In this document: positions 36,174-40,938 of the stretch, one piece after another
Layout of the letters: the number at the start of each line of letters is the position of its first letter
Numbering within the stretch: the stretch's first letter is position 1
NCBI RefSeq assembly: GCF_000154985.1
Contig: NZ_DS572684.1
Location: forward strand, 18,856 to 82,855
Direction: 5' to 3'
Source: Streptococcus infantarius subsp. infantarius ATCC BAA-102
GTDB lineage: Bacteria > Bacillota > Bacilli > Lactobacillales > Streptococcaceae
DNA: 64,000 bases
Translations under genes and position numbers: made by a program
The notes under the pieces: generated by a model
Told to the model about the DNA's origin: nothing
The model's database searches: none
What the model saw: the letters and a program-made list of their open reading frames with translations, nothing else

Positions 36174-36189
36174 TTATGGCTAGTGATAA
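36174..36189 (+). promoter_or_regulatory. Candidate LysR operator 1
   Basis: TTATG-GCTAGT-GATAA matches the two perfect copies at 36521 and 40883 except for one base. It lies about 64 bp upstream of the expected start of the small membrane-protein transcript (extended -10 TGT-TACAAT at 36231-36239). Confidence 0.5.
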
Positions 36190-36262
36190 AAAGAATAGAT
36201 TTTTCTAAAGTAGCATAAGCTGTTACAATAAGCTTAGAAAGCTACTCGGAGGTGAGGTGTCA

Positions 36263-36457
36263 ATGCTCTTAACAGAAAAGCACTTAAGAAATAGCTCAAT
36301 TGCTGTTACAATTATTCTTGTCATATCTCTTCTTATTTTTTTAAAATTTTCTTCCTTTAAAGCCTATCAAACTAATAAAGAATCATCTCAAATTCGAAAG
36401 GAAGACATTATTCGCATTAATAGTCTAAAGAGTTTGACACATTTACCTTATGAGTAA
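36263..36457 (+). CDS. Small single-pass membrane protein, unknown function
   Basis: This 64-residue protein has one membrane helix (about 13-31, IAVTIILVISLLIFLKF) and a charged C-terminal tail. I do not recognise a family. ATG 36263 follows CGGAGGTGAGG at suitable spacing; an in-frame GTG at 36257 overlaps that site. It has its own extended -10 promoter and a strong terminator, so it is a separate unit. Its place between the LysR gene and the UroD/ABC operon, behind a candidate LysR operator, suggests a shared role. Confidence 0.6.
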   Translation: MLLTEKHLRNSSIAVTIILVISLLIFLKFSSFKAYQTNKESSQIRKEDIIRINSLKSLTHLPYE

Positions 36458-36497
36458 AAAGAAAGCTGAGAAAAGTTTCTTAGCTTTCTTTTTTTGG
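36458..36497 (+). terminator. Strong terminator after the small membrane protein
   Basis: AAAGAAAGCTGAGAAA pairs along 16 positions with TTTCTTAGCTTTCTTT, with a tiny loop and a long T run. Confidence 0.9.
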
Positions 36498-36520
36498 CTT
36501 TTTGTTATCATAACTCATTT

Positions 36521-36579
36521 TTATGGCTGAGCATAAATAAAATAGATTTTTCAAGACTTCTAAAGCGTGATAGTATAAT
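36521..36579 (+). promoter_or_regulatory. Candidate LysR operator 2 and promoter of the UroD/ABC operon
   Basis: TTATG-GCTGAG-CATAA (36521-36536) is a perfect inverted repeat. TATAAT at 36574-36579 has no matching -35 hexamer, as expected for an activated promoter. The dyad centre lies about 57 bp upstream of the expected start, the usual region for LysR activators. Confidence 0.6.
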
Positions 36580-36610
36580 TGCCATACCAAATGAAAAGGA
36601 GATTACGCTA

Positions 36611-37642
36611 ATGACAACAAAGAGAGAATGGGTTTTAAAAGCATTTAAAAATGAAACAGTTGACAAGGTTCCAGTCGGCTTCTGGTATCACTTTACAACT
36701 GATGAGGAACGAAGTGATGGTTTTAATCCAGAAATTTTTAATAAAAATATTGCTGGTCACAAAAAATTTGTCGCTGACGTTAATCCTGATTTTGTCAAAA
36801 TCATGAGTGATGGTTTCTTCACTTATCCAAACGAACAAATTCGTGAAGGAATTACTTCCATTAAAGAACTCAAAGGTATCACATCAATCGGTGAAAATCA
36901 TCCATGGATTGAAAAGCAAATTGAGCTCGCTAAAAAAATCCGTGACGATTTTCCTGAAGATATTGCCTCTTTTTATAATATTTTTGCCCCCGCGACTTAT
37001 CTCAAATGGCATCTCGCAGGAAAAGGTGGTAATGGTGATACGATTATCGAAAATTTTATCAAAGAAGATGCTGAATTGACAAAACAAGTTTTGGATGTGA
37101 TTGCTTTTGATATCGGAGTTTTGACAAAACGCTTAATTGAAGAAGCTGGGGTTGATGGCATTTATCTCAGTGTTCAGAATTTGCAGGATTCACGTTTGAG
37201 TCATGGCGAATACGATCACGTGATTAAACCGAGTGAACTCCATATTTTGCATCGTGCTATTTCAGCAGGTGGAACAAACATTCTTCATATCTGCGGTTAT
37301 GAAGGGGCTACCAATGATATTTCTTACTATACAGATTATCCAGCAGATGTCATTAATTGGGCGATTGAATTGGAAGGTGTTAGTCTAGCAAAAGGGCGTC
37401 AGCTATTTGGTGGCAAAACTGTTCTTGGTGGTTTTAACAATACAGAGTCGGGTCTTTTGTATAAAGGTAGTAAAGAAGCCATTCAAGCAAGAGTCAGAGA
37501 ATTGCTTAATGAAACTGGACATCAAGGCGTGGTTATCGGAGCTGATTGCACAGTTCCAAGTGATATTGCATCAGAGCGTATTGCTTGGGTCAAAGAAGCC
37601 GTCGCAGATGAACTTGTTCTCAAAGAAGCAGTCGGATTTTAG
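36611..37642 (+). CDS. Uroporphyrinogen-decarboxylase-family protein, probably a methyltransferase
   Basis: This 343-residue protein belongs to the UroD superfamily barrel. It carries H-x-C in NILHICGYEG and a later Cys in VIGADCTVPSD, the zinc pattern of the methyltransferase branch (MtaA/MtbA/CmuA type) rather than of heme enzymes. No other heme or cobalamin gene is present in the window. ATG 36611 follows AAAAGGAG. It heads an operon with an amino-acid-type ABC importer, hinting at demethylation of an imported methylated compound. That role is inference. Confidence 0.75.
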   Translation: MTTKREWVLKAFKNETVDKVPVGFWYHFTTDEERSDGFNPEIFNKNIAGHKKFVADVNPDFVKIMSDGFFTYPNEQIREGITSIKELKGITSIGENHPWIEKQIELAKKIRDDFPEDIASFYNIFAPATYLKWHLAGKGGNGDTIIENFIKEDAELTKQVLDVIAFDIGVLTKRLIEEAGVDGIYLSVQNLQDSRLSHGEYDHVIKPSELHILHRAISAGGTNILHICGYEGATNDISYYTDYPADVINWAIELEGVSLAKGRQLFGGKTVLGGFNNTESGLLYKGSKEAIQARVRELLNETGHQGVVIGADCTVPSDIASERIAWVKEAVADELVLKEAVGF

Positions 37643-37694
37643 AGATTTCGGAAATCAAGGAAAGTTTTAGGTAAAAAGAAAAGGAGTGGGGTAT

Positions 37695-39276: not shown

Positions 39277-39286
39277 GGAGGAGATT

Positions 39287-39970
39287 ATGGATTTTTCTTA
39301 TATTGTTGAAACATTTGTTAAAGCCCTTGCTGGTATTCCAGTGACGCTTGGCATTATGGTGGTTTCCATTTTGTTGAGCTTTTTCCCAGCTCTTTTCTTG
39401 GCAATTGGTCGTATCTATAAGGTAAAAGGTGTAACTACTTTTTCAGTGATATACCTTGCTTTTATCCGCTCTACGCCAGCTATTTTATTAATTTTATTCT
39501 TTTATAGTTTATTTCCTAGTTTATTAAACCAATTTTTAAAAGCTCTTGGCATCAATATTTTTGAGTTAAATCCGATTTATTATGCCTATGTTATCTTTGG
39601 ACTTATGACAACTGGGAGTCTTTCAGAAATTATTCGCTCTGCAATTTTGACGGTTAATAAGGGGCAGTTAGAGGCAGCTCTTGCGATCGGTTTGACGGCA
39701 AAGCAGGCTTATCTGAGAATTGTCTTTCCCCAAGCCATTCGTCAGGCATTGCCAAATCTCTGTAATTTGGTGATTAATCTTGTCAAAGGTACCTCTCTTG
39801 TTTTTGTGATGACAGTGAAAGATATTACAGCGATAGCGAAAGTGGAGGCGGCTTATGGTTATCATTATTTTGAATCTTATTTTGTTATTTTCATTATCTA
39901 CATTGTTATATGTGGAGTGATTCAGTACATCTTTAAATTTCTGGAAAAACAAAGCCAACTGGTGGGATAA
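39287..39970 (+). CDS. Polar amino acid ABC importer permease (second of pair)
   Basis: This 227-residue permease has several membrane helices and the EAA loop EAALAIGLTAKQAYLRIVFPQA. ATG 39287 follows GGAGGAG; the longer in-frame start at 39242 lies inside the upstream gene without a ribosome site. It forms the channel with the upstream permease. The ATPase starts 15 bp downstream. Confidence 0.87.
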   Translation: MDFSYIVETFVKALAGIPVTLGIMVVSILLSFFPALFLAIGRIYKVKGVTTFSVIYLAFIRSTPAILLILFFYSLFPSLLNQFLKALGINIFELNPIYYAYVIFGLMTTGSLSEIIRSAILTVNKGQLEAALAIGLTAKQAYLRIVFPQAIRQALPNLCNLVINLVKGTSLVFVMTVKDITAIAKVEAAYGYHYFESYFVIFIIYIVICGVIQYIFKFLEKQSQLVG

Positions 39971-39985
39971 TGTGAGGAGAAATTT

Positions 39986-40744
39986 ATGCTAACAGTTAAA
40001 AATATTGAGAAATCTTTTGGAGAAAAGAAAGTTTTAGATGGGATTAGTTTGACGGTTAATCAAGGAGATGTTGTCGTTATTTTGGGACCATCGGGATCAG
40101 GAAAAACAACCTTTTTAAGGTCATTAAATTATTTAGAACATGCGGATTCGGGTGAATTAGAACTGGATGGAAAGACTTATGATTTAGCTAAAATCAACCG
40201 CAAAGATGTGCTAGAGATTCGTAAAAAGACTGCTTTTGTTTTTCAAAATTATAATCTGTTTGCTAATAAAACAGCGCTTGAAAATATTTTAGAAGGTTTG
40301 GTGATTGCCAGAAAAGTTCCAAAGGAAAAGGCAATTCCTATTGCTGAAAATGCCCTAAAAAAAGTAGGACTTCTTGATAAAAGGGATTATTATCCAAGTC
40401 AGTTATCAGGTGGTCAGCAGCAACGTATTGGGATTGCGCGTGCTATTGCTGTTAAGCCAGAAGTGATTTTGTTTGACGAGCCGACGTCAGCACTTGACCC
40501 TGAATTAATCGGTGATGTTCTTGATGTCATGAAAGAATTGGCGCAAGAAGGAGTAACCATGGTTGTCGTGACGCATGAAATGAGTTTTGCACGTGATGTC
40601 GCAACGCATGTTATTTTTATGGAGGGTGGGCATATCATTGAAGAAGGTGACCCGAAAGAATTCTTTACACGACCAAAAGAAGAACGCACAAAACAATTTT
40701 TGACACGGATTATTCCAGAATTAAATATTGACCCAGTGATATAG
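39986..40744 (+). CDS. Polar amino acid ABC importer ATPase
   Basis: This 252-residue ATPase has Walker A GPSGSGKTT, signature LSGGQQQRIGIARA, Walker B VILFDEPTSALDPE and switch His in VVVTHEMSFA. It powers the import complex of the SBP and permeases upstream. It ends the 36611-40744 operon; the following 84 bp hold no credible gene, then a terminator. Confidence 0.92.
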   Translation: MLTVKNIEKSFGEKKVLDGISLTVNQGDVVVILGPSGSGKTTFLRSLNYLEHADSGELELDGKTYDLAKINRKDVLEIRKKTAFVFQNYNLFANKTALENILEGLVIARKVPKEKAIPIAENALKKVGLLDKRDYYPSQLSGGQQQRIGIARAIAVKPEVILFDEPTSALDPELIGDVLDVMKELAQEGVTMVVVTHEMSFARDVATHVIFMEGGHIIEEGDPKEFFTRPKEERTKQFLTRIIPELNIDPVI

Positions 40745-40828
40745 ATGGCTCTTCTGAAATTATTGAAAAAGAAAAAGTAAAAAGCTATGTTATGACTGGT
40801 TTTATCAACTGAACTAACTACCTAAATA

Positions 40829-40860
40829 AAAGGAGGCTGATACATTTCAGCTTCTTTTTA
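40829..40860 (+). terminator. Terminator of the UroD/ABC operon
   Basis: AAAGGAGGCTGA pairs with TCAGCTTCTTTT (two G-T pairs) around a 6-nt loop with trailing T residues. Confidence 0.75.
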
Positions 40861-40882
40861 AGTGTTGTGCTATAAAAAATAC

Positions 40883-40938
40883 TTATGGCACAGCATAAAA
40901 TATTTAGAGTACACGACTATAGAAGAATTCTTTATAAT
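40883..40938 (+). promoter_or_regulatory. Candidate LysR operator 3 and promoter of the second ABC operon
   Basis: TTATG-GCACAG-CATAA (40883-40898) is a perfect inverted repeat of the same kind as operator 2. TATAAT at 40933-40938 again lacks a good -35. The dyad centre is about 54 bp upstream of the expected start. Confidence 0.6.

What the first reader, a model, noticed from the sequence alone, without database searches (positions are those of the whole stretch)
36174..40898. Shared operator TTATG-N6-CATAA defines a candidate LysR regulon with a methyltransferase and two ABC importers
Two perfect and one near-perfect copies of the same 16-bp dyad lie at about 54-64 bp upstream of the predicted starts of three units: a small membrane protein, UroD-like gene plus importer, and a second importer. 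A lysR gene sits next to them, and promoters 2 and 3 lack good -35 hexamers. Together they look like one coherent, to my knowledge undescribed, uptake and metabolism system, perhaps for a methylated amino acid.
Basis: partly seen in the sequence, partly recalled or inferred. Interest (0 to 1): 0.75.

Follow-up and report, generated by a model that had tools for sequence, protein, structure and literature searches.

The report
HomR-type sulfur regulon with two importers

Summary
Two exact TTATG-N6-CATAA dyads and one with a single mismatch precede a 64-aa membrane protein, a UroD-like/importer operon and a second importer (0.09 exact copies expected in 64 kb). They end 66-74 bp before the start codons, not 54-64. 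The dyad belongs to a longer element, TTATRGCNNNNVATAAAWAADATAGATT, mostly 50 or 53 nt before a -10 hexamer.

The adjacent LysR is very probably its reader: among 197 Streptococcus genomes the LysR ortholog is in 29, the element in 28, both in 26. None of 59 genomes with the UroD-like gene but without this LysR has the element.

'Undescribed' is probably too strong. The LysR fits HomR of Streptococcus mutans: a related box precedes metB, the element precedes thiosulfate-transporter-like genes in three other genomes, and a CysR-like box lies in its promoter, as reported for HomR (PMC5131005).

What seems new is the reach of the regulon: a cysteine-type second importer, the membrane peptide, an M20 deacylase, an AhpD-like/flavoprotein pair, and a UroD-fold enzyme with an invariant H-x-C...C triad. 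I infer organosulfur scavenging with thiol methyl transfer. Binding, substrates and activity are untested.

The parts
35115..36029 (-). LysR-type regulator, probable HomR ortholog, divergent from the units it is proposed to activate
   Evidence: Pfam HTH_1 and LysR_substrate; ortholog in 29 of 197 Streptococcus genomes at E 1e-85
36121..36141 (+). CysR/CmbR-like box in the lysR promoter region
   Evidence: 4 mismatches of 21 to the CmbR consensus of PMC5131005, a match of 3-5 mismatches at the corresponding place in L061-L065 and L084; 5 of 300 shuffles of the intergenic stretch do as well: suggestive only
36174..36201 (+). Operator 1 (dyad 36174-36189), before the small membrane protein; -10 TACAAT at 36224-36229
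36263..36457 (+). 64-aa ORF with one hydrophobic segment
   Evidence: 41-100% identical in seven close relatives; dN/dS 0.30-0.54 in six comparisons, the seventh has no amino-acid change; frame cut short in S. vicugnae (L064)
36456..36493 (+). Terminator-like hairpin after the 64-aa ORF
   Evidence: consensus scan, 17 pairs
36521..36548 (+). Operator 2 (dyad 36521-36536), before the UroD-like/importer 1 operon; -10 TATAAT at 36574-36579
36611..37642 (+). UroD-superfamily protein, 343 aa, with invariant H226, C228 and C313
   Evidence: Pfam URO-D; triad in 31 of 31 rows, 28 of them distinct; fold
37695..38558 (+). Importer 1 solute-binding protein (C-terminus altered, see Noticed in passing)
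   Evidence: SBP_bac_3; nearest solved: Lmo2349, YtmK, 4c0r, 4eq9
38584..39276 (+). Importer 1 permease
   Evidence: BPD_transp_1; best NCBIfam match a cystine permease, below cut-off
39287..39970 (+). Importer 1 permease
   Evidence: BPD_transp_1
39986..40744 (+). Importer 1 ATPase
   Evidence: ABC_tran; best NCBIfam match TcyN, below cut-off
40883..40910 (+). Operator 3 (dyad 40883-40898; 3 mismatches to the longer element), before importer 2; -10 TATAAT at 40933-40938
   Evidence: same operator before importer 2 elsewhere in G139 and G148
40965..41648 (+). Importer 2 permease
   Evidence: BPD_transp_1
41608..42285 (+). Importer 2 permease
   Evidence: HEQRo_perm_3TM over cut-off
42291..43037 (+). 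Importer 2 ATPase (TTG start inferred)
   Evidence: ABC_tran, scanned as 42288-43037
43067..43939 (+). Importer 2 solute-binding protein, cysteine-type
   Evidence: 1xt8 E 2.4e-85 and 2yjp 1.1e-80, next match 2.6e-39; the ligand of both entries is recalled

Best explanation
The locus is a sulfur-scavenging regulon run by a HomR-type LysR activator. The LysR binds a two-part site: the dyad TTATRGC-N4-(C)ATAA is the recognition part and ATAGATT, next to the weak -35 region, the activation part. From there it switches on promoters that have a -10 but no usable -35. In this strain it acts at the 64-aa membrane protein, the UroD-like/importer 1 operon and the cysteine-type importer 2, and probably through a variant box at metB. 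SHOWN here: site conservation, fixed promoter geometry, co-occurrence with the LysR, gene content. INFERRED: that the LysR binds and activates, that it is HomR (about 0.85), that importer 1 carries a sulfur amino acid or an S-derivative, and that the UroD-like protein is a zinc-dependent, cobalamin-independent thiol methyltransferase (about 0.45).
For: Operator and LysR together in 26 genomes, LysR alone 3, operator alone 2, neither 166 of 197; leaving out the 20 genomes used to make the pattern, 10 of 12 against 2 of 165. With the UroD-like gene: operator in 20 of 21 genomes with the LysR, 0 of 59 without. Six genomes with the LysR but no UroD-like gene keep the operator at other genes. -10 at offset 50 in 32 and 53 in 10 of 53 distinct sites. 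Sulfur-linked genes behind sites elsewhere: thiosulfate-transporter-like, cystine-type SBPs, M20 deacylase, MetE-like. metB variant box in 6 of 6 genomes read, and in 12 of 197, 11 with the LysR. Importer 2 SBP close to 1xt8 and 2yjp. Reported HomR targets and CysR-HomR cascade (passages of PMC5131005, PMC3616900).
Against: No binding, expression or ligand data. The genomes share ancestry, so counts are not independent. G073 and G180 have the LysR without the operator at 2 mismatches; G051 and G157 the reverse. In the nearest genome G001 the three operator places are all at this locus, so the thiosulfate, M20 and flavoprotein members are seen only in other species. The metB box has its two parts one base closer than the operator; G089 has it without the LysR. 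PMC3616900 lists S. pneumoniae and S. gordonii among species with HomR control of metEF, while five genomes without this LysR show only two of the three paralogs. The CysR-like box is weak (4 mismatches). Sperandio 2010 is not held, so that tcyDEFGH is SMU.932-936 is not verified.
Confidence: 0.75

Rival explanations
1. The element is read by another sulfur regulator (CysR- or MetR-like paralog); the neighbouring LysR is a bystander or a partner.
For: The paralogs are 31-39% identical to this LysR and could bind similar sites; the metB upstream stretch also holds TATAGTT...AACTAT halves like a MetR box (the MetR consensus is recalled).
Against: Five genomes without this LysR still have both paralogs; all five lack the operator, as do 166 of 168 genomes without the LysR.
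Confidence: 0.1
2. The importers serve ordinary polar amino acids, the UroD-like protein is an unrelated passenger, and the shared operator reflects a general amino-acid response.
For: SBP_bac_3 importers are hard to assign by sequence; importer 2 SBP is found in 65 of 197 genomes, in most of them without the operator or the LysR; the UroD-like gene is in 80 of 197, 59 of them without the LysR.
Against: The nearest solved relatives of both SBPs are of sulfur-compound type (ligands recalled), and sites elsewhere precede thiosulfate-transporter-like and MetE-like genes.
Confidence: 0.1
3. The UroD-like protein is a true uroporphyrinogen decarboxylase or another TIM-barrel enzyme without methyl-transfer activity.
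Confidence: 0.35

Closest known systems
HomR regulon of Streptococcus mutans (metBC, tcyDEFGH, thiosulfate genes)
   Same: A LysR of the three-paralog sulfur group; a five-gene importer operon next to it; related box at metB; operator before thiosulfate-transporter-like genes in other species; CysR-like box in its promoter
   Different: A second, cysteine-type importer and a small membrane protein under the same operator; wider set of members in other species; the name tcyDEFGH for the UroD-like operon is inferred
B. subtilis ytm and yxe operons (YtmK, YxeP) for S-modified cysteine
   Same: Importer 1 SBP is nearest to YtmK among others; the M20 member of G176 is nearest to YxeP; a GNAT follows the second SBP in L068
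   Different: In the loci examined the genes are spread over several operator-marked units rather than one operon; roles of the B. subtilis operons are recalled or seen only in abstracts (PMC9706529, PMC12757645)
MtaA/CmuA methyltransferases and MetE (UroD superfamily, zinc thiol methyltransferases)
   Different: Far below the family cut-offs; no cobalamin-binding protein among the genes scanned at the locus

Membership tests
HomR regulon | Regulator is one of the three paralogous sulfur LysR proteins | tested here: met
   Two clear paralogs (37-39% and 32-33%) and only distant others in G001, G139 and G127; three in four LysR genomes, two in five others
HomR regulon | Regulator is HomR and not CysR or MetR | tested here: inconclusive
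   By elimination: CysR is SMU.852 (PMC11631912), and the locus of G127 bears the C-termini printed for SMU.932 and 933 and the SMU.929 motif; the assignment of the two paralogs by gene neighbours is recalled
HomR regulon | Control of metBC | tested here: inconclusive
   Variant box before metB in 6 of 6 genomes read, 12 of 197 genus-wide, 11 with the LysR (six of the 12 made the pattern, and the places in the other six were not checked to lie before metB); spacing differs by one base
HomR regulon | Control of thiosulfate genes | tested here: inconclusive
   Operator before sulfur-transport genes in G044, G143 (1 mismatch each) and G139 (3 mismatches); TsuA model 454 bits, cut-off 645, one protein scanned; none in G001
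HomR regulon | homR under CysR control | tested here: inconclusive
   CmbR-like box, 4 mismatches, 5 of 300 shuffles
HomR regulon | DNA binding by the regulator | not testable with these tools
   no experiment possible
Uroporphyrinogen decarboxylase (HemE) | Match to a HemE family model | tested here: not met
   Only MtaA/CmuA-type models matched in NCBIfam; Pfam URO-D is the superfamily
MtaA/CmuA methyltransferase family | Score over the curated cut-off | tested here: not met
   29.1 bits, cut-off 235.4
MtaA/CmuA methyltransferase family | H-x-C...C metal site | tested here: inconclusive
   Residues invariant in 31 of 31 rows; metal binding not tested
Cysteine-binding SBPs (1xt8, 2yjp) | Closest solved relatives are of this type | tested here: met
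   E 2.4e-85 and 1.1e-80 against 2.6e-39 for the next; ligands recalled

The most novel reading that the evidence does not exclude
HomR is the switch of an organosulfur-salvage programme in streptococci, and the UroD-like protein is a cobalamin-independent, zinc-dependent S-demethylase: it takes the methyl group of an imported S-methylated cysteine or like compound and gives it to homocysteine, yielding cysteine sulfur and methionine at once, with the small membrane protein as a helper of import.
Probability: 0.25. Interest if true: 0.7.

Novelty: new variant of a known kind. Interest (0 to 1): 0.45.

Why it matters
It turns a short dyad into a testable operator with fixed promoter geometry and a named candidate regulator. 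It gives the widely responsive S. mutans operon SMU.932-936, called only hypothetical protein and amino acid transporter in the passages seen, a probable sulfur role. It also points to a UroD-fold enzyme family, present in 80 of 197 Streptococcus genomes, whose unknown substrate can now be sought among S-methyl compounds.

Tried and rejected
Rejected: the loose dyad as a genome-wide signal (G001 at 1 mismatch: 125 matches per strand, 103 for the reversed control; window at 2 mismatches: 59 against 55 expected). Probably chance or unrelated: sites L155 (G051, no fitting gene) and L145 (G157, a cyclase-family gene), both in genomes without the LysR; L133 (G076, 3 mismatches, no ORF downstream). 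Left open: L152 (GATase-like ORF 513 bp away) and L147 (no ORF found within the stretch looked at). Not found: the metB variant box in the window at 3 mismatches. MetR-type boxes (3 mismatches) within 3.5 kb before the UroD-like gene: 4 in 3 of 22 sequences searched (L061, L071, L073), none at a common place.

Led nowhere: AlphaFold of importer 1 SBP (mean pLDDT 36), not used further. Solved-structure searches with the UroD-like protein gave nothing, with its alignment one chance match. The one genome-contig scan gave 7 loci. Plasmid search gave 6 records. Families absent from the fold lists are not excluded.

Counting notes: the genome lists for the co-occurrence test were copied by hand into. 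The 80 UroD-like genomes include weak or partial matches (G173 at 27%, G161 partial). In one search identical 75-nt sites count once, and sites with less than 90 bases of context were dropped. The 31 UroD rows hold 28 distinct sequences. Of the regulon genes elsewhere, one representative of each kind was scanned against families; the others were recognised by their sequence starts.
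Full report
WHAT IS THERE. The window is from a streptococcus of the S. equinus/bovis kind: loci with the closest UroD-like genes are titled S. equinus ATCC 9812, S. equinus Sb04, S. vicugnae and S. sciuri, and the nearest genome held is G001 (UroD-like protein 94%). In order lie a histidine kinase, an aldo-keto reductase (-), a LysR gene (-), a 64-aa ORF with one hydrophobic segment, a UroD-superfamily gene, importer 1 (SBP, two permeases, ATPase), importer 2 (two permeases, ATPase, SBP) and mevalonate genes (the names of the kinase, the reductase and the mevalonate genes come from my reading of the sequence, not from a scan).

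THE DYADS ARE REAL. Two exact TTATG-N6-CATAA copies occur in 64 kb against 0.09 expected, and none of 100 shuffles reaches two; a third has one mismatch. At two mismatches the pattern is not enriched (59 against 55), and at one mismatch G001 holds 125 per strand against 103 for the reversed control. So the short dyad alone is a weak search term. Dyad end to ATG is 73, 74 and 66 bp.

CONSERVATION. Stretches of 20 genomes were fetched, besides seven loci. One search read 21 loci. The site before the UroD-like gene stays at -89/-90 in six of seven close relatives, and at -85 to -92 in six distant ones whose UroD-like protein is 57-62% identical. It lies at -131 to -159 in four. Site 1 is kept with 0-2 mismatches in all seven close relatives; site 3 is exact in the four with importer 2 there. 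In S. sciuri (L066) the internal site is missing, but the small ORF ends shortly before the UroD-like gene, so one promoter with site 1 could serve both (inference). Against: L069 (only a 3-mismatch element 567 bp away), L076, L077 and L080 have no site at the usual place.

A LONGER OPERATOR. The conserved block runs on as TTATRGCNNNNVATAAAWAADATAGATT. In 12 genomes at up to 3 mismatches it gives 2-5 places each, the reversed control 1 place in all. In 53 distinct sites from the window and fetched loci the best -10-like hexamer is at offset 50 in 32 and at 53 in 10 (hexamer score 4.5 or more; offsets 44-61 were tried), although the pattern holds no -10; a C four bases after the pattern is kept in 50 of 53. 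The three window promoters lack a good -35. This is the layout of a LysR-activated promoter with a recognition and an activation part (recalled knowledge of LysR regulators).

In the same 197 Streptococcus genomes the LysR ortholog (E 1e-85) is in 29 and the operator at 2 mismatches in 28 (the reversed control hits 2 genomes). Both: 26. LysR without operator: G073, G180 and G130, which has two places at 3 mismatches. Operator without LysR: G051 and G157. Without the 20 genomes from which the pattern was made: 10 of 12 against 2 of 165. Gene content does not explain this: among 80 genomes with a UroD-like match the operator is in 20 of 21 with the LysR and in 0 of 59 without; six genomes with the LysR but without the UroD-like gene keep the operator elsewhere. 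The genomes share ancestry, so p-values overstate the case.

WHAT ELSE IT GOVERNS, IN OTHER SPECIES. Sites lie before: importer 2 where it is elsewhere in the genome (G139, 3 mismatches; G148, 1); a second cystine-type SBP (L114, L124, L128, L130, L154); an M20 amidohydrolase (L132, L137, L140, L144, L159; for L140 the best solved relative is YxeP, E 5e-100); sulfur-transport genes (L129, L138, L158); an AhpD-like gene and an acyl-CoA-dehydrogenase-like flavoprotein (L139, L146, L153, L157; the AhpD-like gene alone seen in L148-L150; only its start in L134); a MetE-like gene in G070 (L151, over its family cut-off); and in G173 an SBP heading an operon with a distant UroD homologue, 23% (L156, L214). 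The flavoprotein has SfnB and DszC matches far below their cut-offs. After the second SBP of L068 come a GNAT and a GST-domain gene. In G001 only the three places of this locus are found at 3 mismatches.

IS THE REGULATOR HOMR? From passages: S. mutans has four LysR regulators, three paralogous and in charge of sulfur amino acids: CysR, MetR, HomR (PMC4048456, PMC13160496). CysR is SMU.852 (PMC11631912). HomR is needed for metBC, tcyDEFGH and thiosulfate genes and is under CysR (PMC5131005; PMC3616900 also has CmbR control of homR). In G127, whose locus bears the C-termini printed for SMU.932 and SMU.933 and the SMU.929 motif, this LysR has two clear paralogs (39%, 32%) and distant others. Five genomes without this LysR have two paralogs, four with it three. 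A box TTATARCYRANTATYRRKAAWTAGAAT lies before metB in the six genomes read and occurs in 12 of 197, 11 with the LysR (G089 the exception; reversed control 1 place); its two parts are one base closer than in the operator. A weak CysR-like box sits in the lysR promoter. So the reported HomR targets and cascade are each matched, none decisively. Against: PMC3616900 names S. pneumoniae and S. gordonii for HomR control of metEF, and the key paper is not held. I hold the HomR identity at about 0.85.

LITERATURE ON THE OPERON. From passages: SMU.932-936 are lower in saliva (PMC10900908) and in low manganese (PMC6952196); four of their proteins are lower with magnesium or without HlyX (PMC12815764); SMU.933-936 are among the most changed genes in a Cnm-mutant comparison (PMC9513430); SMU.932 and 933 accumulate without ClpX, as do SMU.961 and 962 (PMC10782952), which fits one regulon because the operator also precedes SMU.961-like genes. 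No passage seen gives them a sulfur role. Paper searches listed no paper that ties HomR to a UroD-like protein; listings were capped and the library lacks most subscription journals. PMC9706529, PMC12757645, PMC539065 and PMC10418091 were seen as listing and start of abstract only.

VERDICT. A true, well-conserved regulon. The regulator is probably the known HomR; the wider membership, the second importer and the UroD-fold enzyme are the new part.

Noticed in passing
window about 38520-38560: The importer 1 SBP gene changes reading frame near its 3' end compared with all eight homologues read there, so its last residues differ; natural variant or sequencing error.
   Followed up: partly
L064 (S. 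vicugnae), small ORF at 3738: The small membrane ORF ends after 26 codons there, while the operator is kept.
   Followed up: no
L076, L077, L080: Tandem UroD-like copies with a different small single-segment ORF between them, no LysR within the stretch and no operator; GATA-type boxes upstream resemble CysR sites by eye.
   Followed up: no
plasmid hits H1-H4; L085-L087: UroD-like relatives (35-45%) lie on plasmids of four Lactobacillaceae records and in Treponema MAGs.
   Followed up: no
G089:C36:18125-18151: A perfect metB-type box in a genome with no LysR ortholog at E 1e-85.
   Followed up: partly
L214 (G173): The LysR neighbours an alternative operon: other SBP and permeases, a 23%-identical UroD homologue and an 85%-identical ATPase, under a perfect operator.
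   Followed up: partly
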